64,000 nt of DNA from positions 27,130,983 to 27,194,982 of the forward strand of contig CM067298.1 of assembly GCA_034231615.1 (NCBI GenBank). Direction: 5' to 3'. The number at the start of each line of letters is the position of its first letter. The stretch's first letter is position 1. Both the position numbers and the translations under genes were made by a program. Origin of the DNA: Meghimatium bilineatum. Lineage: Eukaryota; Mollusca; Gastropoda; Stylommatophora; Philomycidae. The notes under the pieces are model-generated. The model had not been told where the DNA came from. It did not search any database and saw only the letters and a list, made by a program, of their open reading frames with translations. Positions 39,505 to 61,828 of the stretch are shown piece after piece.

Positions 39505-41567
39505 ATCGTTTAGAGTATTCTTCAGTCTATGAGAGTATTCTTCAGTCTATGAGAGCATTCTTCAGTCTATGAGAGTATTCTTCAGTCTATGAGAGTATTC
39601 TTCAGTCTATGAGAGTATTCTTCAGTCTATGAGAGTATTCTTCAGTCTATGAGAGCATTCTTCAGTCTATGAGAGTATTCTTCAGTCTATGAGAGTATTC
39701 TTCAGTCTATGAGAGTATTCTTCAGTCTATGAGAGTATTCTTCAGTCTATGAGAGTATTCTTCAGTCTATGAGAGTATTCTTCAGTCTATGAGAGTATTC
39801 TTCAGTCTATGAGAGTATTCTTCTGTAAAAGCATTCTTCAGTCTATGAGAGCATTCTTCAGTCTATGAGAGAATTCTTCAGTCTATGAGTATTCTGCTGT
39901 CTACGAGAGTATTCTTCTGCCTATGAGAGACTTCTTCAGTCTATCAATATTCTGCTGTCTACGAGAGAATTCTTCTGTCTATGATAATATTCTTCTGCCT
40001 ATGAGAGAATTCTTCTGTCTATGATATTATTCTTCTACCTATGAGAGAATTCCTCTTTCTATGATAGTATTCTTCTGTCTATGAGAGTATTTTTTCAGTT
40101 TATGAGAGTATTCTTCTGTCTATGAGAGTATTCATCAGACTATGAGTATTCTTCTGTCTATGATAGTATTCGTCTTTCTATGAGAGTATTCTTCTGTCTA
40201 TGAGAGTATTCTTCAGTCTATGAGTATTCTGCTGTCTACGAGAATATTCTTCTGCCTATGAGAAAATTCTTCTGTCTATGATAGTATTATTCTATCTATG
40301 AGAGTGTTATTCTGTCTATTAGAGTATTATTCAATATATGAGAGTGTTCTTCAGTTTATGAGAGTATTCTTCTGTCTATGAGAGTATTCTTCTTTCTGTG
40401 AGAGTATTCTTCTGTCTGTGAGAGTATTCTTTAGTCTATGGGAGTATTCTTCTGTCTATGATAGTATTCTTCTATCTATGATAGTATTCTTCCTTCTATG
40501 ATAGTATTCTTCTGCCTATAAGAGATTTCTTCTGTCTATGATAGTATTCTTCTGCCTATGAGAGAATTCTTCCGTCTATGATAGTATTCTTCTGCCTATT
40601 AGAGAATTCTTCTGTCTATGATAGTATTATTCTATCTATGATAGTATTCTTCTGCCTATGATAGTATTCTTCTGTCTGTGATAGTATTCATCTGTCTATG
40701 ATATTATTCTTCTGTCTATGATAGTATTCTTCTGTCTATGATAGTATTCTTCTGCCTATGATAGTATTCGCCTGACATGAGAGTATTCTTCTGTCTATTA
40801 GAGTATTCTACAGTTTATGAGTATTCTGCTGTCAACGAGAATATTCTTCTGCCTATGAGAGAATTCGTCTTTCTATGAGAGTATTCTTCTGTCTATGAGA
40901 GTATTCTTCAGTCTATGAGTATTCTGCTGTCTACGAGAATATTCTTCTGCCTATGACAAAATTCTTCTGTCTATGATAGTATTATTCTATCTATGAGAGT
41001 ATTATTCTGTCTATGAGATTATTAATCTGTCTACGAGGGTATTCTTCTGTCTATGATAGTATTACTCTGTCTATGAGTACTATTCTGTATATGAAAGTAT
41101 TATTCTGTCTTTGAGATTATTATTCTGTCTACGAGAGTATTCTTCAGTCTATGCGTATTATTCTGACTATGAGAGTATTATTCTGTCTATGAGATTATTA
41201 TTCTGTCTACGAGAGTATTCTTCAGTCTATGAGTATTATTCTGACTATGAGAGTATTATTCTGTCTATGAGAGTATTATTCTGTCTATGAGAGTATTCTT
41301 CAGTCTTTGAGTATTATTCTGTCTATGAGAGTATTATTCTGTCTATGAGAGTATTATTCTGTCTATGAGAGGATTATTCTGTCTATGAGAGTATTATTCT
41401 GTCTATGAGAGTTTTCTTCAGTCTATGAGAGTATTCTTCTGTCTATGAGAGTATTCTTCTGTCTATGAGAGTATTCTTCTGTCTATGAGAGTATTCTTCT
41501 GTCTATGAGAGTATTCATCAGTCTATGAGTATTCTTCAGTCTATGAGAGTATCTTTCTATCTATGAA
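39505..41567. repeat. Large minisatellite, ~100 units of 20 bp
   Basis: Unit GAGAGTATTCTTCAGTCTAT. From 39505 to about 39820 units are almost identical. The middle (39830-41200) mixes variants: CTTCTG, TTATTCTG, GATAGTATT, and 17-bp shortened units (ATGAGTATTCTGCTG). The right end is homogeneous again. A multi-unit block with ATGAGTATTCTGCTGTCTAC recurs near 40220 and 40917. Confidence 0.97.
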
Positions 41568-43719: not shown

Positions 43720-45915
43720 CTCAGTGTTTAAATGGGCGTGTTTAAATACTCGAAAAATTGCATACCCGTGAAATTTGTATGTTAATTTCTGTGTCTCGTA
43801 TATAGTGGGTTTATATCAATATCATACACTATTTAACTAAAACCGTATTTTTGTATTTATGGATGCCATTTGGTTTAAGTAACAGAAGCTTGCCACGTTC
43901 CACCACTATCAAGTGTTCTTGCTGACCTGAAACCCTACCTCTATGACGTGTTAAAGTCACAGAAACTTGCAAAGTTTCGCCATTAACTAGAAGTGCTCTT
44001 GTTGACCGAAAAAAACATTTATTTTGTTTCTCAAATTATACATTGTTTTTACGTTCTGTTTTTAATTGTTGCTGAATATTTTCCTGAAAAGTTTATTTAA
44101 AATAAAACCTATATTCACTCCATTTCCGATGTAATAGTCCAACACTCACATACGTACACAATAATAAGTACAATTAAATATTTGTATAAGTTGATATTCA
44201 CTTCTGTACAGATTCTACTTATCCATCGAGTGTTCATTTTAAATATTGCAGCTGAGGCCATTTAAATTATAATTTTCATTTATTTGCTACTGCTGTTAGT
44301 GCTGTTCGTATAAGACTCAGTCTAACAATACATATTGACCATTTTCAAAATCAATATCTTTTGATTATTACCGAATACGTGCTTATGATATATTAAAATG
44401 TACTTTTATATATATATATATATATATACACGATGATACCACTTTTTTTATTTGTGGGAAATCTGAGTTAATAGTTACAGGCTTAACAATTACTATAATT
44501 CGTGAGTTAATTATTACTAAATTGTTTCTTATTCTATGCTAATGTGTTTTTGTCTTTAACAGCAACATTATTTGCTTTCTTCAAATAGGTTGGTCAAGTC
44601 GTCAAGTATATTTATATAATTCAAGTTACAAAGGATCCTTCATCATTGTCATAAAATAGTCGTATGGACATATATACCATCACCTTCACTGCTACCATCA
44701 TGGCTGATGATAACATCGTCACAAGCAGTCATATCGGCACATGTATCTAGTGATCTGATAATTTTGCATATAGATATGTAGTCAACAACAGGTACATTTG
44801 TATCGCATCAACAATTTCTGATTATTTCGCATCATGTTCTGGATAAATGCAATATTCGATAATTAAGAATTTACTCACGAGCTCCAAAAAATTCCAGAAT
44901 TTGATAAATTTACAGCAACAAACATAAATCTGAAAATCCAGCCACAAAAAAGATTTGAACATTTACTCAAGTCAAGAATAATAATAACAACCATTAATGT
45001 ACACATGTACATTGGATACACTTTTGAACCATGTTAATTGGGATGTGTTATGATTGACTTTTTGTTGTAGATCATTGGTCACTCAATCTGTTTTTAGATG
45101 CCATTAATTTGATAGAAATTCCACACGTATCAGTGAAGAAATTTAACTGAAGTTAACAATATGAAGAGGACATATGATTTCATGAAGCTATGCACCAGCG
45201 GTACACAGGACATGAAAATACATTGAAGTCATGAGCTGTGGCTAACGGTTAGTGAGCAAAAGCGTAACAATCCCATCGTACGTGACTCCGATGAGCTGCT
45301 GAAGACAGGAAGCAGATAGCTTTGTACAATTATTTTTACATAAGTCTACCGGACCGTTAAGAAACATTGTCAGCCAAGTAAATATAATTATTGCATAGAA
45401 AATCACTGTCTCATTGCTGGGATAATTGCAACATCCAATAAATGTCATGTCCGACTTGCAAGTGCAACTTGAAGCATCCAACATATTCTATTTCTGAATA
45501 AACGTCATGCATGATGCTGTTTATCTAAACGACTTTCATATTGAGAGCTTTGAAACCAGATTGGATTATAATCTGTCCTTCTGTTTAATTGTGTGGCCGC
45601 TTAGAACTATAACTAGTATATGCGATATGTAAGTTTTTATTATATTAGAACCTATATTTACGGTGTACTTGATATATCAGCGACGGAAAGTAAATAAGGA
45701 TATTACCCACAACTCAATGTGAGTTATGAAATGGAAAGTGTGTGGATTTCATGTAATCATCAATTTTGTAATTTATTTCATGAGGACATTGTAATGATCA
45801 AGTTTTTGATGATCACGATTGAGTGATCAAGTTTGTCAATAGTTGATGGAAGTGTTGCTTCTTGGCAGTCTAGCTTCTGACACATCTCTGTGGAAATAAT
45901 TTAAGTTGCCTGATG
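43720..45915. other. AT-rich stretch upstream of the GPCR start
   Basis: May hold the GPCR promoter and any 5' non-coding exon, but no TATA box or splice donor could be assigned with confidence. A short (TA)n lies at 44407-44428. ORF 45242-45484 (-) has no domain. Confidence 0.35.
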
Positions 45916-45921
45916 TAGAAA

Positions 45922-46089
45922 ATGGCCACCACAACATTGCACGTTAATTTGACAAACTCCAGCGATTTCGTCAAAGTTCAAGATTGGAAGTCTTTGTATT
46001 ACGTTCTTTCTCAACTGGCACCATTTTCTCTGGCAGTTGATCGATATGTTACGCCCCTTTGGTGTGTCATCGGTGTACTGGGAAATCTT
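45922..46089 (+). CDS. GPCR coding exon 1 (N-terminus and first half of TM1)
   Basis: The ATG at 45922 is preceded by an in-frame TAG at 45916-45918, so no coding sequence continues upstream in this exon. It encodes 56 residues: an extracellular N-terminus with glycosylation sequons at N9 and N12, then the start of TM1 ending in GVLGNL. The donor gtaggt follows directly. Continuing into the intron gives only Val-Gly-stop, while joining to 55089 gives GNL-ISVRIW, the expected TM1 continuation. Confidence 0.88.
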
Positions 46090-49000
46090 GTAGGTTAACT
46101 TCATTGTCATTTAAATATTATTAACATTATTCGTGAGTTAATTATTCCATTAATATATTAGCAGCATGTGTACAATAGTAGTAACATTTGTAATTTTGAA
46201 GTAACATTTTTATATTAAATAACATTTGTACATTTTAGATTACATTTTTACATTAATATTTACACTTCTACATTAATATTTACATGTGTACATTAATATG
46301 TATACTTGTACATTAATGTTGACACTGGTGCATTAATATTTATATTGTACATTAATATTGACACTTGCACATTAATATTGACACTTGTACATTAGTATTG
46401 ACACTTGTACATTAAAATTGACACTTGTACATTAATATTTACACTTGTATATTAATATTTACACTTGTACATTAACATTTACACTTGTACATTAACATTT
46501 ACACTTGTACATTAATATTTACACATTTATATTAATATTTACACTTGTACATTAATATATACACTTGTACATAAATAGTTACACTTGTACATTAACATTT
46601 ACACTTGTACATTAACATTTACACTTGTACATTAATATTTACACTTTTATATTAATATTTACACTTCTACATTAATATTTACATGTGTACATTAATATGT
46701 ACACTTGTACATTAATATGTATACTTGTACAGTAATGTTGACACTTGTACATTAATATTGACACTTGTACATTAATATTGACACTTGTACATTAATATTG
46801 ACACTTGCACATTAATATTGACACTTGTACATTAAAATTGACACTTGTACATTAATATTTACACTTGTATATTAATATTTACACTTGTACATTAACATTT
46901 ACACTTGTACATTAACATTTACACTTGTACATTAATATTTACACATTTATATTAATATTTACACTTGTACATTAATATATACACTTGTACATAAATAGTT
47001 ACACTTGTACATTAACATTTACACTTGTACATTAACATTTACACTTGTACATTAATATTTACACTTTTATATTAATATTTACACTTGTACATTAATATAT
47101 ACACTTGTGCATAAATAGTTACACTTGTACATTAACATTTACACTTGTACATTAATATTTACACTTTTACATTAATAGGAACATTGTGTATATTAGGATT
47201 TTCCAACTTTGTGGATTATGATATTATTGTTCAGCTATAGGAAACATAATCTACGATTCATGGCGTTCTTGGGAGTTATTCATACGACTAATCTGAGCCA
47301 CAATGAATTGTTACAGTATGTACAAGGAATTATATGCCCCCTTGTACCATTGTGTGCTATTGTGTGTATTCTCAGTAGTGCAGCCATTAATTAACAGATA
47401 TCACTATATCCTTTGTCTTTCAAAAAAGGGTTCAAAGGCCATAGAGGATTGACTTCATTGTACTCGGTTTCCTATATGTACTCTTTCACTCTCAACGAAA
47501 CGGAATGCCACTTGCCGAGAGTGCCAGATCATATGTTGGGCAGTTCATGTGTTAGGCAGATCATATGTTGGGCAGATCATATGTTGGGCAGATCATATGT
47601 TGGGCAGATAATATGTAGGACAGATCATATGTTTTGCAGATCATATGTTGGGCAGATCATATGTTGGGCAGATCATATGTTAGGCAGATCATATGGTTAC
47701 AGTGATTGAATTCGGATGTCACATGGATAGGTCACAAGTGTACAAATCATTTGTACCATTCTTGTATTTGTGGTATTGGTGGCGACATAATCTGATAAGT
47801 CATAGGCGAATCACCTGCTTCCTTTGTGAAAACAGAGTGTAGGCATTATTTGCTTTAAAATTTGACCTGCGTGCTCGCGTTCCCACTTTGATTTGAGAGT
47901 TGTTTTAAAATGTTGCTATAGCTACCTTATACGTATTTATAAGTCACTCTGTTGCAATGTTCACCCTTCTTTCATTGGTTTATCTATAGCTTCATTTCCT
48001 GGGATGTTGCAATATGCAACCTTCTTTCGTGAATTTCTCTACAGCTTACTTTTCCGGGATGATACAATGCCCAACCTTCTTTCACGGGTTTGTCTATAAC
48101 TTAATTTCTCGGGATGTTGCAATGTGCAACCTTCTTTCATTAGCTTGTCTACAGCTTCATTTCCTTAGATCCAATGTGATGGTAATCTCTTGTAGCCCGG
48201 GCTAACTTTTCTAGTGAGTATGCCAATTCACACTAAGGGAGGAGTTATAGCAGAGAAGTGGTAGCGTTACTAAAGAGAATTCAATTTTAAAGTTATAGCT
48301 CTCAAATTTTCACATGACATACACATCTTTATGAAAACACACGTTTCTTGGATTCATGTCTAAATATGCTGGAAGAGGAATTATTTTAAAAATAAAATCT
48401 GCATTAAAAATGATAGTATACTTGTGTGAGAAATTGATGTAATTTCTAACATAACTTTAAGAACAAAATTATGTCATACTCAACTAACTTCAACAATCCT
48501 ATACATAAATGGAACATGCTGGCAAGAACTAAGGAAAATAATATATATTAAATACATTTTTGTTTACATCATGCTAACTATCACGCTTTTTTAACTTAAA
48601 ATTTCTAAATTTAAAGTATATAAAAATTAAACTAATCACGTTACAACAATTGCTTCAGTCTGTGTCATAAGCAGCTATACAGTAAACAAACATAAACAAT
48701 TTCAGTCAGATTGATTAATATTTGAAAACGTTATGGTGTAATACAGTGTTTCCCAACCTTTTTTTCTTCCATGCCCCACCCAAGTCTTTTTAAAATTATG
48801 ATGTAACATATACATATTTTTTTATATTCAAAAATTGTATTATTCCACCAAATATTTTCGAAATTGTCCCCATGAACAATCAAATTGCCCCTCTGGGGGG
48901 CATGCGCCCCACGTTGGGAAACACTGGTGTAATACGTACTATGAAGTTTTATTTTTCGTTAAAGTTTACGGCATATTTATACAAAACATTTGGATGCAAT

Positions 49001-52000
49001 CTGGTTACATAGAATTTCGAGGGAAGAAATTGCTTTTGGGTCTCCCTGAGACCCGTGTTCTAGGTTCATTCTACTGAAAGGTATTACCTAACTTTTTCAG
49101 TGTGATTGGGCATGCGCAGCGTGTGATTGAATGAGGGGTAGGGTTAGAATTAGTATTTAGAAATAGGGTAGGATTTGGATGTGCAGCAGTTGTGATATTT
49201 AACCTACTTATGTTGAGTTTTCTAAAAAAAAAAATATCGTCTATGTCGGGTGATGTGACGTCACGACATCCATCGATTTCATTTGTCTTCCACTGAAATC
49301 CGTGACGTCACGTAATTGAAAAAATGTAAACAGTGTGTTATTTATAGCGCAGTGAAGACCTAAAAGCAGTTTTAACCGATTTCAAGATCTATTATTGACT
49401 AATTCTGTAACCTATATATTCATTGTGACTACATTATTCATTGCTTATTGATTCTTTCAAATATGTAGGCGTATTTCAACCAGTAAGTCCATGTCTTTCA
49501 TTTTCATAGTTGAAAGACTGTGAGTGGGTGTGGCACTTTCAATTGTAGATTCCTTAGTAATTGGATAATTCACATAATTTTTCACTATTATAAATATTAT
49601 TTTTTCACTAATCCCTGTTATATCTTCCCCCATAATAATTATGTCGCTGCTGATCTGGCTCTGTAGTGGTTCTATTTCTGGCCATCTTTAAGAATGACAA
49701 GTCTTTCCACTTTGAGATTCAATGAGAGTGTTTGCTGCATGTTTCAGGGCTTCCGTTTTGTTTCGAAGTTCCTGCGGTATTTCCAGTAGCTATTGATAAT
49801 GATACTCAAAAGGTATAGAGGATTGACTACATTTTACTCGGTTACCTCATATGCACTACATCTCTCTCAATGAGGTGTCGTTTGCGAAAAGTACCACTCC
49901 ACTGATAGTGAGATTTTCTTTATATTTTTAAATCCAATCTTCTTCTATATTCAGGTATTTGTGACTATCTACATTTAAATGTTTCTCTGTCATTGCCTAT
50001 TATGACTTTTCGATAACATTTCATTTCAATTGCTGCTATTTTGCTTTCCATATTGGATGTCGTTGTCCAGTTTTCACAACCATATGTAGCCACTGGGAAT
50101 CGAGTTATTATTAATAGTTGCAACTTTCTTGTCCTTCTCGCTATAAATATTTCATATGTGATGCATTTATAGGTCCATTCGTAATCTATTCCTGATCTCT
50201 ACTGAATAATCTCATTTATAGGTCCATTCGTAATCTATTGCTGATCTCTACTGAATAATCTCATTTATAGGTCGATTCGTAATCTATTCCTGATCTCTAC
50301 TGAATAATCTCATTTATAGGCCCATTCGTAATCTATTCCTGATCTCTACTGAATAATCTCATTTATAGGCCCATTCGTAATCTATTCCTGATCTCTACTG
50401 AATAATCTCATTTATAGGCCCATTCGTAATCTATTCCTGATCTCTACTGAATAATCTCATTTATAGGTCCATTCGTAATCTATTCCTGATCTCTACTGAA
50501 TAATCTCATTTATAGGTCCATTCGTAATCTATTCCTGATCTCTACTGAATAATCTCATTTATAGGTCCATTCGTAATCTATTCCTGATCTCTACTGAATA
50601 ATCTCATTTATAGGCCCATTCGTAATCTATTGCTGATCTCTACTGAATAATCTCATTTATATGCCCATTCGTAATCTATTCCTGATCTCTACTGAATAAT
50701 CTCATTTATAGGCCCATTCGTAATCTATTCCTGATCTCTACTGAATAATCTCATTTATAGGTCCATTCGTAATCTATTCCTGATCTCTACTGAATAATCT
50801 CATTTATAGGTCCATTCGTAATCTATTCCTGATCTCTACTGAATAATCTCATTTATAGGCCCATTCGTAATCTATTGCTGATCTCTACTGAATAATCTCA
50901 TTTATAGGCCCATTCGTAATCTATTCCTGATCTCTACAGAATAATCTCATTTATAGGCCCATTCGTAATCTATTCCTGATCTCTACTGAATAATTTCATT
51001 TATAGGCCCATTCGTAATCTATTCCTTATCTCTACTGAATAATCTCATTTATTAATGTTTGAGATTATATTAAAAACTAGCGACTTTGTCTAGTCATTCA
51101 TTGTCAATAGTTCTTGCAACTATAAGTCCCCTTCATGTAGCTGTAAGTCCCTTTCCTGTAGCTATAAGTCCCATTATTACAACTTTAAGTCCCCATATTG
51201 TAGCTGTAAGTCCCCATATTGAAGCTGTAAGTCCCCATATTGTAGCTGTAAGTCCCCATATTGTAGCTGTAAGTCCCCATATTGTAGTTGTAAGCCCCCA
51301 TATTGTAGTTGTAAGCCCCCTTCTTGTAGCTGTAAGCCCCCATATTGTAGTTGTAAGCCCCCTTCTTGTAGCTGTAAGTCCCCATATTGTAGCTGTAAGT
51401 CCCCATATTGAAGCTGTAAGTCCCCATATTGTAGCTGTAAGTCCCCATATTGTAGTTGTAAGCCCCCTTCTTGTAGCTGTAAGTTCGCTTCATGTAGCTC
51501 TAAGTCTCCATATCGTAGCTGTAAGTCTCCATATTGTAGCTGTAAGTCCCCTTTCTGTAGTTATAAGTCCCATTCTTACAATTGTAAGTCCCCATATTGT
51601 AGCTATAAGTCCCCTTCTTGTAGCTCATTTCTTTTTATCGTAAGAATATTGGCAAATACGCTAAAAACCCTTTCCACAAGGTATGAAGATGGAAAAGGTA
51701 TCAAATTCGTTCTTACGATAGTCCATCAGGAACAGGTATATCTCTCAGAAACTAGACATGTTGATACCCCTTTCTGAACTGTACTTTAAGTTTTACGTTT
51801 GTGCTTATTCCGATCAGCCTTCTTGTAATATGACATCCAATTATTCCATGTCACGTATGAATTGATAATCCGCTGTGAAATTTCCATAGTCAAAGAATTC
51901 TAAACCAGGTTTAAAAATCCGTGTGAAGGACCGTTAAATTTTGAACGTAGACCAACACGTCATCTTCCTCGCCGTTTGTCAGTGACACCTTAGGAAACTG

Positions 52001-55000
52001 GAAAAATTGGCTCCCTCCAAATGTTTTGCAACATGAGGTTCATTCTGGCAAGAAACGCTGCAATGATTGGCTTGTTTTTATTAAATTCTACGGTCACCTT
52101 GTAACTGCAAGTTAAGCTCATTCAATTTAGACAACAAATCTGTTAAATAACCAATGTCTGGTTTTCATTAGATTAAATTTCCTTTGAAAATGGGATCTGT
52201 AGCATCCACAACCCTAAAACGATCTCAAATGGTGAAAATAATCTTATCGAACATAAGCCTTTTGAGAACCAAATTGACGAAAGCCATCGTCATTTTCTTG
52301 ACACAACTTCACAAATAACCTAGAATTCAATACGCTGCTACGAATTATGTTTACTGTGTTTATGACGAATTGAAGAGATTGATGCAATCTGGAGGGGTGC
52401 AAAGGTTCTCGCGTTGCTCTCCTGTGAACCAATCCTTAGCAGATAGACAAGATCCTAAAAGTACCTGACGTCTGGGATCTAGGGACAAATTCCTATTCTC
52501 ACAAATAAACAAAGTTATACTACAATCCGCACAGAAGGCAATCCCAGGGGGGCAGTCGAAGAGAATACAAGTCTTATTGGAGTGAGACTAGAAAAATTGT
52601 ATAACGAGCTGAATGATGCAAGACATACAATGGAGTACAACCCTACAGCAGAAAATACAAAGAAACACAATGAAATCAAACACACGTCAGAGAAGAACAG
52701 AGATACAAAAGAACTGGCATGAAAAGACCAGCAGTCTAAACATGACAAAAGACACAAGTAAACTATGGAACCTTACAATAACTCTAAATGAAGAAACAAA
52801 GAATTCACACTACAAGACTGTCATCGAAGAAGAGGGAAAATTCCACACAGGGAAAATGGCAGCAAACATTTTAGCTGACTTCTAGAAGAAAGAAAGCACA
52901 ACAACACTCTCTCATACACGTATCAAAGAAGTCAAAAAAGAAATTAAAAGAAAACTGAAGAATCAAAATCCAGAGCCCTGCATGAAGACACCCTTATCCA
53001 TCGCAGAACTAAATGGTGCCATAGGAAAACTAAAAACCAAAAAGGCCCTAGGAAAAGACGGCATAACCAATGATATGATCAGGAACCTAGGGCCAATCAG
53101 CAGAAACAAGCTCCTTACCATCTTCAACCAATCATGGAAAACTGGTAAAATTCCAGACTTGTGGCGTGAAGCTGTCATCATCCCAATTGGGAAAAAACAA
53201 AAAGGAAAAACAAGCAAGTCAAACTACCGACCAGTCAGCCTCTTGAGTTGCATAGGGAAAACAAATGGAGAGAATGGTCAACTCTAGACTGATAAAATAC
53301 CTAGAAGAAAACATAGGGTAGTAATGGAATGGTCTTTCTACACGAGAAACAGCTCGCTGGTTGCAAAACGCCTCGTCGTCGGAAAGTCAAACAATGGGTG
53401 ACACAAGCAAACTATCAGTTCGTCTCGCAACATATACCCTGAGTAGATGGCTCCTTCAATCAATTACATTAAGCCGAAAGCTGAAGTATCATTGGTATGA
53501 AAGAAAGCTAAGAAAAACCACTCCACTGCACATAGAAAATAATAGCTAATCGCTGGCAATTCCTGATGTTATTAACAAAAAACACAAACAACATGCAATC
53601 TGGCACTCGGATTTTTAGCTACTAAATTGTGTCCATGAATGACGTAGTGCATTGCAAACACCCGAGATACATTGGATTTGAATGGCTTAAGAACCGCCAT
53701 AGCGGCCTAACATGGATGATGCTCATCTTCTACTTCCGACATTATATTTGAGAAAGGGGTCGCTTTCTCCCTGAAATAATCTTTTAAAACATAGAATTTT
53801 GTATTTGCCTGTACTGTCTGTTGTCAAAGTTCTCTCAGTTTTTCTTGAATTTCTTGGTACATAACGAACATGTACCAATAATAGTGATTCATTACGAATC
53901 ATGTACCAATAATAGTGATTCATTACGAATCATGTACCAATAATAGTGATTCATTACGAATCATGTACCAATAATAGTGATTCATTATACGGCAAAATTG
54001 ACTCTTCGAGTTGAATTGATAAATGGTTCATTTGCAGATAAACATACAAGAGGATTTCAACACCATGACTCATTTCATCAATATGTGTTTGAACCGTGTT
54101 GCTGCTCTAAACAATTCATTTGAGTCTACCATATGAAAGCTTCTGTAGACCTGATTTTAAACCTCTTCAACAGCTGGAACAATCAGCTGTTCTTCAATAG
54201 TATGAGACTTTCCTAATTTTGCTAGTGGTATTGGGGATATTGTAAGGCGCCCGCAAAGCATTATTGTCTCTAATTGAAATTGAAGCGATCATACTGTCCA
54301 CCGTGGTTCTCCTCTGACGTTTTAAAATGTTATGTGGGGTAACTGTGTTTAGTGCAAGTTTTATACACACGATACGTTGATGCTTGCATGAACACTTTTT
54401 TAACCCTGCGCATAAGCGTAGACACACAAAACGAACTTGATAGGTACTTGAACAATTTTATAAAATATAATTTATAAACATATACATATAAAGTAATTGC
54501 TATGTCTATTAAAAGTATTATGTACATACTATCTGTTTTATTTGTAATATGGCATTTACAGAACGGCTAAATGTTGATGATGATCTGTCTTAATGGGGTT
54601 CGCTCTCGTGGATCCCCATTTACATCTCGTGCACCCACATTTTTTTTATCGTTGACATAGTCCCCTTTTAAGTTGAAATCGACGCCTGTGGATCTATATA
54701 GACCACTTTGGAAAACACAGGTCTAGATTATTGGTTTAATATGAAATAAAAGTTACTAGATGGTCATTAACTTCGGTCTATTGTTGGTAATATTGGTAAA
54801 TGTGAGATGAAAGTTACTAGAATGTCACTAACATTTGTAAAATATTGAGTCTAATGTTTAAGAAGTGTCATTAAAATCACATGGCGGAAAGAAATTCTGT
54901 TTACTGCCGAACAAGTTGCACAATGGCTAGTATTATTCGCATAAAGCCATTGCAATATTGATCATATTTTATTAACATCAGTTCTGAAACTTATTGTTTT

Positions 55001-55304
55001 CTCACACCAGAAGCGCCCATAGACAGTGAGATTCACATAGCAGCATGCATCATTTATTCATAATATTACAATATTTTCCATTTCACAGATTTCTGTTCGA
55101 ATATGGACATTACGACGCATGCGCAAGTGTAACAGCTCTGCAGCTTATCTGGCTACGTTAGCTGTGTCGGATTGTCTATTTTTGATACTTATAGTTGGTA
55201 ACGAACTACAGTATCCATGGATGGTGGGAGTTTTGGATCTCCAGGTTAGTTTATTTACGTGTTCCCCATCCCCGACTGTTAGTATTAACTAATGCAACAA
55301 TGTG

Positions 55305-55402
<98 letters not shown>

Positions 55403-58400
55403 CGAATGGTAGTGAGGTATAGTCTTAAACCATATATATATGGTTATGAGTCTCAGGCAATGACATCGGCAATGGAAAAAAAAATTTATGAAACAGAATG
55501 TTCTAGAAACGCCCTAATAATATAATGGACAAAAAGACTATCCCACAAATATGTACACACGTTCGTGAGGACTTGAACATAGACGAAGATTGCCATCTCA
55601 AAACTATTTCCCCCAAAAACGTGGGTTAACATATTTTAGACATATAACAAGATACAATGGTTTCTAAAGATTAATCTTGGAAAAAATGTTCCAAGAAAGA
55701 AATGTTCCAGGAAAAAGAACAAGAGACAGATTAAGACTAATATGGACACAGCATATCGAAAGAACGTCTGAATATGACACTTATAAGAGGCTAAACAGAG
55801 TGCACAGTACTGAAAGTCTTACACATTGGCAGTGAGGACAACGTTATGCAAAGAACACGGCATATATATAAACAGTCGCGCACATCGAGGTCCATATAGG
55901 TTTCACGACACAATAACTGTTATAATGCATGGAATTAATGGATGATCAAATGAGTGATTGCACCTGACTTTCAATTTTCTAATTAATGATTCCACCTTCT
56001 CATCGCCTCATCCATTTTAGAATAGCGGTGGGCAAAATATAGCCCGCACGTCAAATCCGTTCCACCAAGCTATTGTACTGACCCGTCATGATTATTTAGA
56101 AGTAATATATTCCGGTTCTGTGGCAGCGTGGTAGAGAGCGTCTGTGACGGAAAAGGTACTAGGTTCGAATCCCTCCGCAGGCAATTGTACATCCGGACCG
56201 TTGAGAGAACAATGACAAAGTACATAACTTATTTATATTGCCTAGAAAATCATCCCAGCAAAAAAATTATCGGTTGATGGCTACGTCCTGAATAGAATAC
56301 GCTACCAATAAATATGCACTGAGCATCAAGCTTTAAAAAAACACATTACATGGATCTTCAACAGACTAAAGAAAAAAGTCTTTCGGCTGCTTACTACACG
56401 AAATCAGCTAATCCTGCTCGGTATCTAAGACGTTAATCTCTTAAATAGATCTTTTACCAACACCTCGAGTAACTTCCTTTATTCAGAGCTAACGTCTACA
56501 CTTTAGGTAACACTATTCATTCAGAGCGTACGCATACAATGCATATAGTTGACTTAATACAGAGCTAACGCATACACTTCATACAGTTACTCTCATTCAG
56601 AGCTAACTCCTATACTTCAGACAACCCATCTCCCCTTCGAGCTAATTTTAAGATATAAGATAGCCAGCTCCACTTAGAGCTTACACTCATTCCTCATAGA
56701 ACCTCATTTGTTAATAAAACAATATAATAATAATAATATTAATAAGACTCATAACCCGTCAGGTGCCACAATGGAGACATAACCCGTCAGACGTCATTCT
56801 GGAGACATAACCCGTCAGATGTCACAATGGAGGCATTACTCGTCAGACGTCATACTGAAGACATAACCCATCAGGTGCCACACTGGAGACATAACCCGCC
56901 AGACGTCATACTGGATACATAACCAGTCAGACGTCATACTGGAGACATAACCCGTCAGATACCACACTGGAGGCATAACCCGTCAGATGCCACACTGGAG
57001 ACATTACTCGTCAGACATCATACTGGAAACATAACCCGTCATATGCCACACTTGAGACATTACTCGTCAGACGTCATACTGGAAACATAACCCGTCATAT
57101 ACCACACTGGAGACATTACTCGTCTGATGTCATACTGGGTACATAACCCGTCAGGTGCCACACTGGAGACATAACACGTCAGATGCCCCACTTGAGACAT
57201 TACTCGTCAGACGTCATACTGGATACATAACCCGTAAGACGTCATACTGGAGACATAACCCGTCAGATACCACACAGGAGACATTACTCGTCAGACGTCA
57301 TACTGGATACATAACCCGTAAGACGTCATACTGGAGACATAACCCGTCAGATACCACACTGGAGGCATAACTCGTCAGATGCCACACTGGAGACATTACT
57401 CGTCAGACGTCATACTGGAGACATAACCCGTCAGATGCCACACTGGAAACATTACTCGTCAGACGTCATACTGGAGACATAACCTGTCAGGTGCCACACT
57501 GGAGACATTACTCGTCAGACGTCATACTGGAGACATAACCCGTCAGATGCCACACTGGAGACATTACTCGTCAGACGTCATACTGGAGACATAACCTGTC
57601 AGGTGCCACACTGGCGACATCACTCGTCAGATGCCCCACAAAAGACATCAGCACAAAAAACATTCCAAACATCTCTATCCTCGGCAATTCTGGGGAGTGT
57701 AGAAAATCATGCCCAGACCATTCCTTGATGTTCTAAATCAAGGATTTTCTTACCGTTTCTTCTTCTTCTATACCAGCAAGTTCCTTCTAAAGTAATTTTG
57801 GAAAGTGAATCGTGTCTCGTTACATGTCCAAGCCAAAAATGTTTACGCTGTTTCAGCACTGCTAAATGTGAGTTGATAACCTGCAAGCTTATTTATTTGC
57901 TTCTGGAGTAATATATTTGTCTTGTGTGCTATAAAACTAATTCCTAACAAAAATCTGTAGAATTTGTTTTTCAAAAGGCTGAATTCTTCTTACTCTGTTT
58001 CCATTGCGTATCCAACTTTCACATCCCTATAAAAGTATACTTAGCACTATGGCTCAGAATAGATTGATAACTGTAATACTGATCTTACTTTTCCAAATCA
58101 TATTTAACCTTCCCTTTGACAGCCACCGCCATCTCGAGTCTTAGCTTAATCTCATTTCTCGAGTTGCCATCATCACATATTTGTGAGCCGAGATATTTTA
58201 AGGTAGGAATTTCTTCAAGTTTGTGTCCGTTAATACAGGAAGAGGATCTGACTTACGGTCAAAATGGTGTAGAATAACAAGTTTATCTGCTTACAGAAAC
58301 GCCACGTTTAGGAGAGGATTTTGGCGCCGTCGAATAAAATTATACCGATGGGAAATGCTACGCTAGAGTATCGGCACAAATGCAAAATATTCAAAAGTAT

Positions 58401-61208
58401 AGATCCACTTCAAACACCACCTCCATTTAGTTTAGAGATTAGACCCGAACATCTCAGTCTTGTTTCCTGTCGTACGCAGTATTTTGTCCTTCAATCTTGC
58501 GCAATAAAACGACAGTTAGAAGGTGATTGCTGTCATTATCGAAAATGTATCTCAAACATGTGTTGACAGTGAAAATGTTAGACATAAATTATGTATGCTT
58601 GTTTGTAGTTGCTATTTTTATTCTTGCACGCTGTTTGACATTTGTAGCACTCTGTGTTCTCATAATATCCAAATGACCTTCCAAGATAATGCTTGTAGAT
58701 TTAGATGTTGTCAACTGAAATCAAAGTTAGTGAGTTCTTGGCCAAATATTAGAGAGAAAAATTGCATATGCACTCAATATGAAAAAAAAACTGTCCTTCT
58801 GTGATATTTGTAGATGTTATGATGTATGTTTTCGATACGACCTGTTCATGTGTCTTTGGTTATTTTCGTTTGTCATCTTCGATAATACTTTATTTACTTG
58901 ATCTTGTTTCTATTTACTGATGCATATATATCTTCTTCTTGCATCAGTGTCTTTATATCCTTCGCTTGTTCCTCAAAAATGTCGTGTTCGAAATAGTATC
59001 ACCATAAGGGAATATAAATGAATTATCTCCTTAAATAAGGAAACGTCCATGAATTATGTTCTTGAATAAGGGAACGTCCATGAATTATCTTGTTGTGTAA
59101 GGGATATAAATTACATCACCAAATTTTTTCTATTTCTTCCCCCCCCCACTCACAACCTTGTCAACACTTGTCACTAATTCAGGGACCCATCCTACTAAGT
59201 ATGTGAACACAAATTTAACACCTCTCTCCAAATAATGAATAGATAAGGCCTTAGCGAAAAAGACACGAAAAATCAATAAGGTTTGTTTCACACATTTAGA
59301 AACAACGTTACAGAATTGCAATAATTTAAATTTAATTTATGTGTAAACAAAAATTGTGTTGTGACGTCAAATGTAAATACCTCTTGTGAACAAATATCAA
59401 AGTTTTTTATGGTCCATCTTTCTCTCCCCCCCCCCAGTTGTTGAAATAATGTATGATGAGATCCTAAAGAAGAGTACTGACTTTTGAAAACAAATGTTAC
59501 AGACAAATGATGTTCATCCGTTGTAATCGACGATGACCAAAACTCAACCAAAATAATAATAGTAACAAGTAATAAAAGATAAAGTTAATAGTGCGTTTTT
59601 AAATGACTAACAAGTCCAATGAATCACAAAAAGTTCTTTCACACAAGTGACAGCTGTAGAAAGTGTCTATGGGACGTTGAGATATTTTGTCTTTTCTACT
59701 TGCCCGCTTCTGTCTTGCAGTATCTTGCCTGGACTCTTCCGCCGCTAGTACTCCAGCTCTGAGACTGTAACTCCATGATGTTCTATCCTAAGCGAGGATC
59801 TCCGAAGAGACTGCGTCAATTTTAAGATGTTTCAGTGAGGGCTTTAGTGTGTCTTTTAAATGCCTTTTCTGTCCACCAACTTTTCGAAGTCCTGTCTTGA
59901 GTACTCCATAATATATTTCTTTTGGTAGACGCGAGTCCTCCATACGCACACGATGACCTGCCCAGCGTGCTTACGCTTTCATAAGCAATTGAAAGTGGAA
60001 GAAGAATTGAAAGGAAATAAGAAATTTGGATTAATAATATTAAAGACTGGACAGAAATAAGATTATCTGAACTTGACTTACAACAAAGAGGAGACGCGAC
60101 ATATTTTTTTGTTTCCAGAGTGGCTTTAGGCAGTGAGGCGACTATGAGGAGGACTTAGACCTTCATGGGATTATGAGTTTGATGATGGTGATAAATTACG
60201 TCAACCGTTATTGTACAAACATTAATTGTTATTTTCGTAAATGAATAAGAACAATTAGTTGATTTTTAGATTTAACAAGCTTATATTCATGTGACATTAA
60301 TCAACATAATAACTGTGACTGTAACATACCTGTGCTCTGGTTGTCAGATATATTGTCATTAATTATGCTATCTACAATCGGTCACAACAATAATCTAATA
60401 TTTTGTGTATTTTTCTCATCTCCAGGGCTGGTGCCAGATTTGGAATGTCCTGCAAATAATGTGTCAATACATCTCTGTTCTGCTTGTTTTTGCATTCACC
60501 GTTGAACGATTCATTTCAGTATGTCGACCATTCTCATGCGAGAAATTTTCTAAAACTTCCAGATGGTCTAAGATCATCACTGCGATATTATGCATTTCTG
60601 TCATTCTTGCCTTGCCCCAAGCATTTTTCTGGAACGTCAGCCCTGACACAGGAGAATGTGCTGTTAGAAAATCATTTAACAATATCTACGTTGTTTGGAA
60701 CTGGACTTCGGATCTGGTTATGTTTGGAGCAGTTCCCATTGTAGTTTTTTTACTTAACGTGTGTGTTCTCAAACAGATTAGAACTGTGGGAAAGTTGTAT
60801 ATTACAAGCGAAACACTGCATAGACACGCGGGTACAAGATGTACATCCACAACAGCCACACTCATGTGGATCTCCTTCTACCTCATCTTTAGCAAACTTC
60901 CTGTGACAATTATGTTCACCATGCAGTCCAGCGTACAGTTTGGGGATGACATGAGCATTGACGCCATGAAAAGTGACGCAACATGGCAGAATTATTTGAC
61001 ATACTTTACCGCGCGGAAACTTATAGAAGAGCTGGGTATTTCCCATCATGCTTTCAATATATTTATTTACGCTGCCACCAGTAAACAATTCCGGACACAT
61101 CTCACAGCACTGTTATTGCGGACGTTCTGGAGAAAGGGTATGGCTCCCAGGAGTTCTCCGTCACAACCAGTCAGACCAAGACAAAACTGGTTGCATTCCA
61201 AAGCTTGA
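45922..61208 (+). CDS. Rhodopsin-type (class A) GPCR, three coding exons
   Basis: Spliced gene: exons 45922-46089, 55089-55244 and 60426-61208, introns 46090-55088 and 55245-60425. Donors read gtaggt and gttagt; acceptors end ttcacag and ctccag; both junctions are phase 0. The product is 368 aa. TM1 is about residues 43-65 with GNL (N55 = N1.50), TM2 about 74-92 with LAVSD (D84 = D2.50). TM3 follows GWC (C111, partner of C186 in extracellular loop 2) and ends E135-R136-F137 instead of DRY. TM4 is about 157-177, TM5 about 200-223 (P212), TM6 about 250-271 (P267). TM7 ends N319-I-F-I-Y323 instead of NPxxY. The N-terminus has NLT and NSS sequons and no signal peptide. Class A receptors sit in the plasma membrane and couple to heterotrimeric G proteins. 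The ligand is unknown; it resembles invertebrate peptide receptors (FMRFamide/TRH-receptor-like), which is inference. No frameshift or internal stop is seen. Upstream non-coding exons may exist. Confidence 0.9.
46150..47180. repeat. Intronic minisatellite, 20-bp unit with 420-bp higher order
   Basis: About 50 units of ACACTTGTACATTAATATTT. The variants ATTAAAATTG (46411 and 46831), ACATTTATATT (46523 and 46943) and ATAAATAGTT (46571 and 46991) all recur exactly 420 bp apart, so a 21-unit block was duplicated. It begins about 60 bp after the exon 1 donor. Confidence 0.96.
47428..47545 (-). mobile_element. SINE family S2, 3' part only
   Basis: Matches 63510-63605 of the S2 copy: GGGTTCAAAGGCCATAGAGG, TTGACTTCATTGTACTCGGT, TTCCTATATGTACTCTTTCA, CTTGCCGAGAGTGCCA. 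The tRNA-like head is missing; the sequence runs straight into the 16-bp array. Confidence 0.75.
47524..47697. repeat. Minisatellite, 16-bp unit
   Basis: About eleven units of GGCAGATCATATGTTG with variants (TAGGACAGATC, TTTTGCAGATC). The first unit overlaps the end of the SINE fragment (GAGTGCCAGATCATATG). Confidence 0.93.
47955..48185. repeat. Tandem repeat, four units of ~56-60 bp
   Basis: Diverged units with CTTCATTTCCTGGGATGTTG, CAATATGCAACCTTCTTTC and a GTTTGTCTATA-like block. Overlapping 68- and 63-codon ORFs arise from the repeat. Confidence 0.8.
48190..48735. other. AT-rich intronic stretch, no feature seen
   Basis: Part of GPCR intron 1; nothing recognised. Confidence 0.4.
48744..48926. 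mobile_element. Short hAT-type MITE with perfect 8-bp duplication
   Basis: 183 bp. Left end CAGTGTTTCCCAACCTTTTT; reverse complement of the right end CAGTGTTTCCCAACGTGGGG, a 14-bp perfect terminal inverted repeat. Flanked on both sides by GTGTAATA (48736-48743 and 48927-48934). CAGTG termini and 8-bp duplication define hAT. An ORF at 48835-49077 crosses the right end and is not a gene. Confidence 0.93.
48940..49800. other. Intronic stretch with paired TGACGTCA palindromes
   Basis: TGACGTCA occurs at 49256-49263 and 49303-49310, each within GTGACGTCACG. No exon recognised. Confidence 0.45.
49804..49905 (-). mobile_element. SINE family S2, 3' part only, diverged
   Basis: TATAGAGGATTGACTACATT, TTACTCGGTTACCTCATATG and GCGAAAAGTACCACTC match the corresponding blocks at 63515-63612 with several changes. 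The head is missing. Confidence 0.65.
49920..50160 (-). mobile_element. LINE RT fragment
   Basis: Reading leftwards: EIFIARRTRKLQLLIITRF, PVATYGCENWTTTSNMESK, IAAIEMKCYRKVI, then SQIPEYRRRL. The YGCExW and EMKCYRR blocks are diagnostic of non-LTR reverse transcriptase C-termini. Confidence 0.85.
50165..51055. repeat. Minisatellite, 49-bp unit
   Basis: Eighteen near-identical units containing AATAATCTCATTTATAGGCC, CATTCGTAATCTATTCCTGA and TCTCTACTG. Variants are TAGGTCC/TAGGCCC and ATTCCTG/ATTGCTG. The left edge abuts the LINE fragment, whose last bases (CATTTATAGGTCCATTCG) already resemble the unit. Confidence 0.96.
51110..51640. repeat. Minisatellite, 21-bp unit (185-codon artefact ORF)
   Basis: About 25 units of CCCCATATTGTAGCTGTAAG plus T. 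The 7-codon period has no stops, so a 185-codon + frame (SPHIVAV repeats) and a 102-codon - frame (YSYNMGT) are both open. Nothing around it looks like an exon, and it lies inside GPCR intron 1. Confidence 0.93.
52500..53325 (+). mobile_element. Jockey-type LINE fragment (pre-RT and RT fingers/palm start)
   Basis: In shifting frames: AIPRGGSREYKSYWSETRKI, NWHEKTSSLNMTKDTSKLWN, LTITLNEETKN, GKMAANILADF, stop, then TPLSIAELNGAIGKLKTKKA, LGKDGITNDMIRNLG, NKLLTIFNQSWKTGKIPDLW, REAVIIPIGKK, NYRPVSLLSCIGK. This is the canonical pre-RT and first RT blocks. It breaks off before the YADD catalytic block. Opposite strand to the surrounding hAT relic. Confidence 0.88.
53870..53990. repeat. Minisatellite, 31-bp unit, inside the transposase relic
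   Basis: Four units of CATGTACCAATAATAGTGAT plus TCATTACGAAT. On the - strand one phase reads YNESLLLVH, the conserved transposase block, so the array grew from transposon coding sequence. Confidence 0.9.
54725..55088. other. Intronic sequence upstream of GPCR exon 2
   Basis: No element recognised. It ends in the polypyrimidine-like tract and TTTCACAG acceptor of exon 2. Confidence 0.5.
55089..55244 (+). CDS. GPCR coding exon 2 (end of TM1, TM2, extracellular loop 1)
   Basis: A 156-nt exon of 52 codons with no start codon of its own, so a simple ORF search will miss it. The acceptor is a pyrimidine-rich tract ending ttcacag; the donor is CAG|gttagt. It encodes basic intracellular loop 1 (RRMRK), then NSSAAYLATLAVSD, the TM2 signature with the conserved Asp, and loop 1 ending VLDLQ. 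It joins in phase to GWCQIW of exon 3. Confidence 0.88.
55307..55400. repeat. (TA)n microsatellite
   Basis: About 46 TA units beginning 60 bp after the exon 2 donor, in GPCR intron 2. Confidence 0.97.
55480..55845 (+). mobile_element. LINE RT C-terminal tail, decayed
   Basis: Includes a YFRHITRYNGF-like block (GHITR), NVPGKRTRDRLRLIWTQHIE, RTSEYDTYKRLNRVHSTESL, THWQ. The GKRTRGRxRLxWxxxIE pattern is that of LINE reverse transcriptase ends. Confidence 0.7.
56015..56100. other. Possible solitary hAT end
   Basis: AGCGGTGGGCAAAATATAGC followed by CCGCACGTC resembles a hAT terminal repeat; no opposite end or duplication is seen. Confidence 0.35.
56113..56312 (+). mobile_element. tRNA-derived SINE family S1, copy 3, best head
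   Basis: The head keeps both pol III boxes: TGGCAGCGTGGTAGAGAGCG (A box) and AGGTTCGAATCCC (B box). CTGTGG at the head pairs with CCGCAG after the B box like an acceptor stem. The body has CATCCGGACCGTTGAGAGAA, ATTGCCTAGAAAATCA and TTGATGGCTACGTCCTGAAT, as in the copy at 6375. It could be mistaken for a tRNA gene. Confidence 0.85.
56320..56740. other. Intronic stretch with weak periodic CAGAGCTAA words
   Basis: Between 56480 and 56690, TTCAGAGCTAAC-like words recur about every 45 bp with much divergence; possibly a very old tandem array. Confidence 0.4.
56743..57640. repeat. Minisatellite, 28-bp units in 56-bp dimers
   Basis: About 32 units. Two types, ACATAACCCGTCAGATGCCA and ACATTACTCGTCAGACGTCA, each followed by CACTGGAG or TACTGGAG, often alternate to make 56-bp dimers. 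Open in one + frame for 71 codons by chance. Confidence 0.95.
57640..58320 (-). mobile_element. LINE RT C-terminal part
   Basis: Reading leftwards across frames: INGHKLEEIPTLKYLGSQIC, DDGNSRNEIKLRLEMAVAVK, GKVKYDLEK, then KHFWLGHVTRHDSLSKITLE, GTCWYRRRRNGKKILD, EHQGMVW, LPRIAEDRDVWNVFCADV. The YLGSQI, GHVTRHDS and EDRDxW blocks are those of a common molluscan LINE type (family known to me; not checked). Broken by indels. Confidence 0.88.
58320..58985. other. Intron 2 stretch, no feature supported
   Basis: ORFs of 81 and 93 codons (58321-58566, 58523-58804) overlap in different frames, have no domain and lie between confirmed GPCR exons. Confidence 0.4.
58985..59100. repeat. Short tandem repeat, three ~36-bp units
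   Basis: Three units built on AAACGTCCATGAATTATGTT or GAACGTCCATGAATTATCTT with TTGAATAAGGG linkers. Confidence 0.75.
59100..59685. other. Intron 2 stretch with C-runs
   Basis: Poly-C runs at 59139-59147 and 59427-59435. The ATAAATTACATCAC and GTGACGTCAAATG words resemble the TIR element at 61999-62254, but no boundaries can be drawn. Confidence 0.4.
59690..59990 (-). mobile_element. LINE RT C-terminal tail
   Basis: One frame of the - strand reads ARWAGHRVRMEDSRLPKEIY, YGVLKTGLRKVGGQKRHLKD, TLKPSLKHLKIDAVSSEILA, stop, DRTSWSYSLRAGVLAAEESR. The RWAGHxxRMxDxRLPK and G-x-RK-x-GGQK-x-R-x-KD blocks define it; a single stop replaces the residue before DR. Confidence 0.88.
60000..60170 (+). mobile_element. 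LINE RT tail, short
   Basis: Reads EIWINNIKDWTEIRLSELDL, QQRGDATYFFVSRVALGSEA. The W-x-x-NIKDWT block and following residues match LINE reverse transcriptase ends. It is head to head with the previous tail, 10 bp away. Confidence 0.65.
60180..60425. other. Intron 2 end, before GPCR exon 3
   Basis: AT-rich; ends in ATTTTTCTCATCTCCAG, a good polypyrimidine tract and acceptor. Confidence 0.6.
60426..61208 (+). CDS. GPCR coding exon 3 (TM3-TM7 and C-tail)
   Basis: 260 codons plus TGA. The open frame extends back to an ATG at 60405, but those seven codons include the splice acceptor (tttttctcatctccag), so 60405 is not the real start. It carries the TM3 cysteine, ERF, the loop-2 cysteine in GECAV, TM5-TM7 and the TM7 motif NIFIY followed by SKQFR, the usual start of helix 8. 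The C-tail is short, basic and Ser/Pro-rich. Confidence 0.92.
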   Translation, partial: GWCQIWNVLQIMCQYISVLLVFAFTVERFISVCRPFSCEKFSKTSRWSKIITAILCISVILALPQAFFWNVSPDTGECAVRKSFNNIYVVWNWTSDLVMFGAVPIVVFLLNVCVLKQIRTVGKLYITSETLHRHAGTRCTSTTATLMWISFYLIFSKLPVTIMFTMQSSVQFGDDMSIDAMKSDATWQNYLTYFTARKLIEELGISHHAFNIFIYAATSKQFRTHLTALLLRTFWRKGMAPRSSPSQPVRPRQNWLHSKA

Positions 61209-61828
61209 TTTGATTTCTTCACGTATTGTTAATGTGTATGTGTGTGTTATATAGGAATGTGTTAATATATTCGTATGTGTGTATGCATGTGTTTGTTTGA
61301 TCGAGTTTGCGTGTTCATGTGTAAATGGGTGCATGTTTTCGTATATATGTGTACGCTACATGGGCTCTACATTTAAAAAGGGCACATCATCTTCTGAAAG
61401 GATGAGAAATGGAACAGCTCGATAACGGAGAGTAACTAGAAAGTCATGATTATACCAAAATCCGTTTACAGGGGTAATTCCATGTCCAAACAGTCCAAGG
61501 GGTTTTACAGCTCTAATGGGGTTTATTAGCCATCTACGAACTACTAGACAGGGGGATAATTCAGACTGAATTTTCAACAACGGATGTAATAAATGGTCAT
61601 CATCACTTGTGATGGACGAACACACACAAATGTGTAGGCATATGTTTGCATGTGTGTACATGGTTATCGTATGTACATTGTACTTTGTTTTCAATGTTGT
61701 CATACCTCTATTCATTTTCTTATTGCTTATTATTTCCTTATATATTTCTCTATGTTGTCTTTCTCTATGTTGTTTTATAGTATTTATTCTTAACATTAAA
61801 TATCACGTTTTACTTCTTGTAAACACGC
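61209..61828. other. GPCR 3' flank
   Basis: Holds the probable 3' UTR with GTGTGTATG-rich sequence (61230-61350) and a candidate polyA signal. The - strand ORF 61356-61796 has no recognised domain. Confidence 0.4.
61588..61593 (+). promoter_or_regulatory. Candidate polyadenylation signal for the GPCR
   Basis: An AATAAA hexamer about 380 nt after the GPCR stop codon. In AT-rich DNA this hexamer is common by chance, so it is only a candidate 3' end. Confidence 0.3.

What the first reader, a model, noticed from the sequence alone, without database searches (positions are those of the whole stretch)
45922..61208. A complete GPCR assembled from three phase-0 exons, two of them too short for ORF calling
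Exons of 168, 156 and 783 nt join without changing frame and restore TM1 through TM7 in order, with consensus splice signals and an in-frame stop just upstream of the ATG. The short exons contribute GNL, LAVSD and the loop-1/TM3 junction, which a random match would not give.
Basis: partly seen in the sequence, partly recalled or inferred. Interest (0 to 1): 0.75.

Follow-up and report, generated by a model that had tools for sequence, protein, structure and literature searches.

The report
Land-snail orphan neuropeptide-like receptor gene

Summary
Confirmed. Exons 45922-46089, 55089-55244 and 60426-61208 (+) join by GT-AG introns in phase 0 into a 368-aa receptor. Biomphalaria P0002 is 71% identical over 100% of it, and tblastn of P0002 on the window gives three collinear hits at these exons and no other at E 0.1. 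Among GT/AG pairs within 60 bases, the proposed junctions score best at both introns. The model has seven helices plus helix 8. The tree pairs the gene with Bradybaena (100/97), so the source is probably a stylommatophoran snail or slug. It belongs to a gastropod orthologue group within a spiralian family that includes Platynereis 'Orphan G-protein coupled receptor 50'. Public names conflict and none is shown to be orthology. Proline of the TM7 NPxxY motif and tryptophan two before the TM6 proline are almost always missing in the family. Five of 35 hits start at the exon-2 methionine and lack TM1. Splicing is inferred, ligand unknown; a neuropeptide is my guess. Low interest: a new member of a known, uncharacterised family.

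The parts
45916..45918 (+). In-frame TAG stop six bases upstream of the start codon
45922..46089 (+). Exon 1 (168 nt, residues 1-56): N-terminal tail with NLT and NSS sequons, most of TM1, ends ..GVLGNL
   Evidence: tblastn P0002 1-58 on 45922-46095, 66%, E 1e-20
46090..55088 (+). Intron 1 (8,999 nt, phase 0), CTT|GTAGGT ... TTTCACAG|ATT; holds tandem arrays and, by eye, a LINE-like fragment
   Evidence: best-scoring of 84 local GT/AG pairs, 24 of them open; repeats
55089..55244 (+). Exon 2 (156 nt, residues 57-108): end of TM1, ICL1, TM2 with LAVSD, ECL1
   Evidence: tblastn P0002 57-108 on 55089-55244, 79%, E 4e-23
55245..60425 (+). Intron 2 (5,181 nt, phase 0), CAG|GTTAGT ... CATCTCCAG|GGC
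   Evidence: best-scoring of 26 local GT/AG pairs, 10 of them open; an acceptor at the same residue is suggested by ORFs P0007, P0010, P0022
60426..61208 (+). Exon 3 (783 nt with TGA, residues 109-368): TM3 (GWC, ERF), TM4-TM7 (NIFIY), helix 8, C-tail
   Evidence: tblastn P0002 107-370 on 60420-61205, 70%, E 8e-127
61588..61593 (+). AATAAA, first candidate poly(A) signal, 380 nt after the stop codon
   Evidence: pattern only

Best explanation
An intact, spliced three-exon gene of a land snail or slug (Stylommatophora, from its pairing with Bradybaena in the tree) encodes a 368-aa class A (rhodopsin-type) G-protein coupled receptor. It is the orthologue of the receptor annotated 'GPR142' in Biomphalaria and belongs to a spiralian orphan family that includes Platynereis 'Orphan G-protein coupled receptor 50'. 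Shown: gene structure at sequence level, conservation across gastropods, predicted seven-helix architecture, conserved TM3 and ECL2 cysteines, R3.50, N1.50 and D2.50. Inferred: it is spliced as drawn, sits in the plasma membrane, binds an extracellular ligand, most likely a neuropeptide (the best solved sequence matches are peptide receptors), and couples to a heterotrimeric G protein. Because tryptophan two before the TM6 proline and proline 7.50 are almost always missing in the family, its activation switch should differ in detail from the textbook CWxP/NPxxY mechanism.
For: Full-length homologues spanning all exons; junction enumeration; Pfam 7tm_1 67.5 bits joined versus 53.6 for exon 3, 13.6 for exon 2 and nothing for exon 1 alone; model pLDDT 81.2, pTM 0.77, helices 34-62, 72-97, 110-141, 153-170, 190-235, 243-277, 293-326 (broken at 318) and helix 8 at 328-346; invariant N55 and D84 in 15 rows, invariant R136 and C186 and nearly invariant C111 in 24 rows; tree that follows gastropod systematics with WIN+Bradybaena 100/97; profile search with a drop from 253 to 120 bits between family and arthropod receptors; neurotensin receptor 1 as the best solved chain by sequence and fold, ghrelin receptor with the more distant profile.
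Against: No transcript, expression or ligand data. Matches to solved structures are weak (about 20% identity), and the TM5-TM7 half alone has no convincing solved match (best 17.8 bits, E 0.025; single sequence E 0.88). Receptors for non-peptides score close behind the peptide receptors (LPA6a 55.7 and histamine H2 52.9 bits against TRH receptor 55.5). Exon 3 has a sub-threshold match to the nematode chemoreceptor profile Srg (16.5 bits, cut-off 22), and some other family members match Srx and Srw, which leaves a chemosensory role open.
Confidence: 0.85

Rival explanations
1. The mature product starts at the exon-2 methionine (residue 67, MRKCNSS..) and lacks TM1; exon 1 is not part of the main transcript.
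For: Five of the 35 database proteins (Bradybaena P0003, Physella P0005, Lymnaea P0006, which is marked partial, Aplysia P0008, Patella P0016) start at exactly this methionine; the bryozoan P0062 also starts at the equivalent methionine.
Against: Exon 1 is conserved in sequence with full-length models of Biomphalaria, Plakobranchus, Littorina, Batillaria, Haliotis, Lottia and others, which a non-coding stretch would not be; a receptor without TM1 would be unusual. The short models look like a missed short exon thousands of bases upstream (inference; those genomes were not read).
Confidence: 0.05
2. It is a pseudogene or unexpressed copy.
For: No expression evidence was available.
Against: No stop or frameshift in 368 codons, GT-AG at both introns, 68-83% identity to the six named heterobranch orthologues, terminal branch of only 0.089 in the tree.
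Confidence: 0.03
3. It is a chemosensory receptor rather than a neuropeptide receptor.
For: Of the 15 rows of A3 (the window not among them) 6 match Srx and 2 match Srw profiles; exon 3 has a sub-threshold Srg match; several bivalve proteins appear to share a contig, as chemoreceptor clusters do.
Against: In the tree the gastropod orthologue group tracks the species tree, though copy number per genome was not tested. The Aplysia AcCR chemoreceptors are mostly intronless, clustered and carry ERC (PMC2700072, passages); here ERF, two introns and no second copy in the window at E 0.1.
Confidence: 0.25
4. It is the gastropod orthologue of vertebrate GPR139/GPR142 or of the related protostome MIP/FMRFamide/myosuppressin receptors, and would respond to aromatic C-terminal amide peptides.
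For: Public names 'GPR142' (Biomphalaria, Physella, Haliotis), 'GPR139' (Watersipora) and 'FMRFamide receptor-like' (Mercenaria, Babylonia); degenerate TM7 motif also reported for MIP receptors (PMC8514136, passages); the GPR139 chain aligns over nearly the full profile (48-354 of 379, 58.8 bits).
Against: GPR139 scores below neurotensin (73.6), ghrelin (69.4) and neuromedin U 2 (64.2) receptors in the same search, and 49.2 against 86.2 for ghrelin receptor with the distant profile. MIP receptors carry QRY at TM3 by PMC8514136, here ERF. No MIP, FMRFamide or GPR139/142 sequences could be put in a tree.
Confidence: 0.3

Closest known systems
Biomphalaria glabrata 'G-protein coupled receptor 142' (P0002, 370 aa)
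   Same: 71% identity over the whole length, all three exons collinear
   Different: Sequence divergence only; the vertebrate-derived name is not shown to be orthology
Platynereis dumerilii 'Orphan G-protein coupled receptor 50' (P0118)
   Same: Same spiralian family by profile and tree; shares the altered TM6 (LTTLP) and TM7 (NFFIY) motifs
   Different: Lies in another branch of the tree, with annelids, bivalves, a bryozoan and two gastropod rows; still named orphan in the database
Neurotensin receptor 1 / ghrelin receptor (solved structures)
   Same: Class A fold; best sequence and fold matches
   Different: About 20% identity over the fold. The neurotensin match ends near residue 180 for the single sequence and at profile position 265 at most; the ghrelin match runs to about 310. 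Arthropod pyrokinin-type receptors, relatives of these by their names, fall outside the family; 31 of the 36 outgroup rows with letters there have NPxxY
Aplysia AcCR candidate chemoreceptors (PMC2700072, passages)
   Same: Molluscan class A receptors of similar length
   Different: Mostly intronless or one intron, clustered, ERC motif; here two introns, ERF, no second copy in the window

Membership tests
Class A (rhodopsin) GPCR | Pfam 7tm_1 above gathering score | tested here: met
   67.5 bits versus 30.5, residues 62-286
Class A (rhodopsin) GPCR | Seven TM helices and helix 8 | tested here: met
   AlphaFold2 model, pLDDT 81.2; prediction only
Class A (rhodopsin) GPCR | GN in TM1, LAxxD in TM2, Cys at TM3 start, E/DR in TM3 | tested here: met
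   GNL 54-56, LAVSD 80-84, C111, E135-R136
Class A (rhodopsin) GPCR | CWxP in TM6 and NPxxY in TM7 | tested here: not met
   FSKLP and NIFIY here; family counts in the full report. These motifs are usual, not universal, in class A (recalled), so the fold and profile decide membership; the departure is real
Gastropod orthologue group of the Biomphalaria 'GPR142' gene | Clade with heterobranch, caenogastropod, vetigastropod and patellogastropod members | tested here: met
   13-row clade 99/96, 7-row heterobranch clade 100/100; names of the higher groups recalled
Spiralian 'Orphan GPCR 50' family | Profile similarity well above other receptors, shared TM6/TM7 motifs | tested here: met
Vertebrate GPR139/GPR142 | Orthology in a tree with GPR139/142 | tested here: inconclusive
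   Only PDB scores were available: GPR139 58.8 bits, below NTSR1 73.6 and GHSR 69.4
Neuromedin U / pyrokinin receptors | Grouping with arthropod pyrokinin/CAPA receptors | tested here: not met
   The six arthropod outgroup rows lie on one side of a branch (91/84), one of them very long; molluscan NMU receptors were not included
Aplysia AcCR chemoreceptors | ERC motif, none or one intron, clustered genes | tested here: not met
   ERF, two introns, no second copy in the window at E 0.1
Neuropeptide receptor (function) | Activation by an endogenous peptide | not testable with these tools
   no assay data

The most novel reading that the evidence does not exclude
The gene is a land-snail member of a spiralian-specific receptor class that has lost both standard class A activation switches (W6.48 and P7.50) across molluscs, annelids and bryozoans, and that answers an as yet unknown molluscan signal peptide.
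Probability: 0.3. Interest if true: 0.45.

Novelty: new member of a known kind. Interest (0 to 1): 0.22.

Why it matters
It shows that a split gene with two short exons can be read correctly from raw sequence. It also points to a correction for public records: five gastropod models of this receptor start in exon 2 and lack TM1, probably because the short first exon was missed. The family is conserved across gastropods and beyond, carries contradictory names, and I found no known ligand for it, so a correct full-length sequence is what an expression and ligand assay needs.

Tried and rejected
Naming by best public name was rejected: the hits carry names as different as GPR142, CCR1-like, LPA6-like, TRHR-like, CX3CR1-like and CAPA receptor-like. 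Placing the family with TM5-TM7 alone failed: the single sequence gave one hit at E 0.88, the profile gave GPR183 first at E 0.025. Rfam at gathering threshold, tRNA and bacterial promoter/terminator scans of 45700-46000 found nothing; one search is not apt for an animal gene. The 2015 Platynereis deorphanization paper is not held, so what it did with Orphan GPCR 50 was not seen. Literature searches (listings) showed me no paper about this family, but I opened passages of only seven of the papers listed; two listed papers on Biomphalaria/Schistosoma receptors (PMC9114394, PMC10783048) were not opened and might treat it. Paralogue count and synteny in the window's own genome could not be examined.

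Full report
Observation. Their lengths are 168, 156 and 783 nt, all multiples of three, and the introns of 8,999 and 5,181 nt begin with GT and end with AG. Joined they give 368 residues. A TAG stands in frame at 45916. I enumerated every GT within 60 bases of each donor against every AG within 60 bases of each acceptor, one intron at a time with the other fixed, and scored the open products by global alignment to the better of two proteins (Biomphalaria P0002, Plakobranchus P0004). The proposed pair scored best at both introns: 1447 versus 1422 for the runner-up at intron 1 (84 pairs, 24 open) and 1447 versus 1426 at intron 2 (26 pairs, 10 open).

Homology across the exons. A search of 5.8 billion proteins gave 35 hits at E 1e-3 or better. 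The best, P0002 of Biomphalaria glabrata (370 aa), is 71% identical over 100% of the query; P0004 of Plakobranchus is 68% over 98%. On the window, tblastn with P0002 at E 0.1 gives three hits and no more: residues 1-58 on 45922-46095 (66%), 57-108 on 55089-55244 (79%), 107-370 on 60420-61205 (70%). Nine query proteins were used in that call; eight gave hits on exons 1, 2 and 3, and the ninth, the distant Mizuhopecten P0029, gave exons 2 and 3 only. The small overruns at the ends have a plain cause: intron 1 begins GTA (V) where orthologues have V or I or similar, and intron 2 ends CTCCAG (LQ), the same six bases that end exon 2. The GT-AG rule resolves both.

Further support for a junction comes from three database ORFs from short contigs, P0007, P0010 and P0022, which run from non-homologous residues into ..Q|GWCQIW. 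I read these as unspliced genomic ORFs, an inference since their DNA was not seen; they would place an acceptor of the form CAG at the same residue as here. Five of the 35 proteins (P0003, P0005, P0006, P0008, P0016) start at MRKCN, the methionine in exon 2, and so does the bryozoan P0062 at the equivalent place. I read them as models that missed exon 1; P0006 is marked partial, and transcripts without exon 1 are not excluded.

Protein. Pfam 7tm_1 scores 67.5 bits for the joined protein, residues 62-286; 53.6 for exon 3, 13.6 for exon 2 and nothing for exon 1. So exon 1 rests on the orthologues, not on Pfam. The AlphaFold2 model (A1, 24 rows: the query and 23 of the 35 hits) has mean pLDDT 81.2 and pTM 0.77, with seven TM helices, short strands at 177-179 and 186-188, and helix 8 at 328-346; residues 1-13, 232-244 and 347-368 have pLDDT under 50. 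Intron 1 falls near the cytoplasmic end of TM1 (after residue 56), intron 2 just before TM3 (after residue 108). Of 1,791 fold matches the 50 listed are class A receptors, neurotensin receptor 1 first at 20% identity.

Motifs. Among 60 rows (the window and 59 family proteins, partial ones included) the second position of the TM7 motif is never proline in the 58 rows with letters there, and the residue two before the TM6 proline is never tryptophan in the 59 rows with letters. In a wider regular-expression count over 138 rows (the window and 137 hits taken as family), TM7 matched in 121, of which 2 read NPxxY and 14 read KFxxF; TM6 matched in 127, none with tryptophan there; 17 and 11 rows were not matched. 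In the 56 outgroup rows 31 have NPxxY, 20 are gaps and 5 vary. The TM6 register rests on taking the proline as 6.50, and MAFFT offsets the outgroup there by two, so the W6.48 statement is less firm than the P7.50 one. TM3 of the window carries ERF. The position numbers 1.50, 2.50, 3.50, 6.48, 6.50 and 7.50 are recalled conventions applied by me.

Family. A profile of 15 proteins found 109 proteins at E 1e-10 or better; the scores drop from 253 bits (P0066) to 120 (P0067, an ant protein), then mostly arthropod pyrokinin-type receptors. A profile of 23 more distant members found 320, of which 120 were listed and read. In each of these two searches only the roughly 8,000 candidates sharing most words were scored. 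Named members include gastropods, bivalves, annelids (Paralvinella, Platynereis, Capitella, Lamellibrachia), a bryozoan (Watersipora) and Octopus. The tree uses 51 of 193 database proteins, chosen by hand mainly for named species, plus the window. The window groups with Bradybaena (100/97) inside a five-row pulmonate set (99/94) inside seven heterobranch rows (100/100), next to Littorina and Batillaria, then Haliotis, Gigantopelta, Lottia and Patella (99/96). That Bradybaena is a stylommatophoran, and these group names, are recalled. A second gastropod lineage of 16 rows (Haliotis, Gigantopelta, Lottia, Patella, Littorina, Batillaria, Bulinus, Lymnaea, Candidula, Bradybaena, Elysia, Plakobranchus) sits apart, but its deepest fork is weak (84/39). 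The two together form a clade of 29 rows at 100/98. Octopus, Watersipora, Mactra, Sinanodonta and two outgroup rows have long branches and unsure places. How many copies each genome holds was not tested.

Function. The best solved sequences by profile include neurotensin receptor 1 (73.6 bits), ghrelin receptor (69.4), neuromedin U receptor 2 (64.2), motilin receptor (59.5), GPR139 (58.8), the non-peptide LPA6a (55.7), TRH receptor (55.5) and histamine H2 (52.9); with the more distant profile ghrelin receptor leads at 86.2 and GPR139 has 49.2. The TM5-TM7 half gives no convincing match. A peptide ligand is therefore a reasoned guess. Thiel et al. 2021 (PMC8557429, passages) describe a protostome group of W/Y/Famide receptors sister to GPR139/142; whether this family belongs there could not be tested. 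PMC8514136 (passages) reports degenerate TM7 motifs and QRY in MIP receptors; the window protein has ERF. PMC2700072 (passages) describes Aplysia chemoreceptors that are mostly intronless, clustered and ERC; this gene is not like them. PMC7749107 (passages) reports a slug neuromedin U receptor with five exons over about 9 kb, so split receptor genes with introns of kilobases are known in slugs.

Verdict. The thing is an ordinary, intact receptor gene, a new member of a family already annotated in several molluscs under conflicting names, with no ligand known to me and a near family-wide change in two activation motifs.

Noticed in passing
P0003, P0005, P0006, P0008, P0016 (database proteins): Public models of the orthologue in Bradybaena, Physella, Lymnaea (marked partial), Aplysia and Patella start at the exon-2 methionine and lack TM1; probably a missed first exon.
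   Followed up: partly
52886-53287 (+), inside intron 1: ORF with sequence that looks to me like a LINE reverse transcriptase fragment (recalled pattern); Pfam gave no reverse-transcriptase hit at E 0.1.
   Followed up: partly
22151-22465 (-): RNase H-like ORF, E 1.8e-4, 22.1 bits, below the gathering score of 25.8; probably a retroelement remnant.
   Followed up: partly
28971-29480 (-): 169-aa ORF that looks RNase H-like by eye; no Pfam hit at E 0.1.
   Followed up: partly
46240-47177, 50164-51052, 51123-51625, 56750-57639: Large tandem arrays inside the two introns (20-, 49-, 21- and 28/56/84-bp units); the first starts about 150 bases after exon 1. The 28/56/84 series looks like a higher-order repeat.
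   Followed up: no
55307-55400: Perfect (AT)47 run that starts 63 bases downstream of the last base of exon 2.
   Followed up: no
39512-41566 and 27047-27902: Very long minisatellites: 104 copies of a 20-bp unit and 45 copies of a 19-bp unit.
   Followed up: no
55239-55244 and 60420-60425: Exon 2 and intron 2 both end in CTCCAG, so a translated search alone leaves the junction ambiguous by two codons; only the GT donor settles it.
   Followed up: yes
database proteins P0061, P0125, P0160, P0170 (Mactra) and P0150, P0157, P0164 (Sinanodonta): Several family members per bivalve are listed on a contig of identical length, which suggests local gene expansions in bivalves.
   Followed up: no
database proteins P0046, P0047, P0051, P0172 and others: A second, paralogous gastropod lineage of the same receptor family, with Lymnaea and Bradybaena rows in both lineages.
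   Followed up: partly
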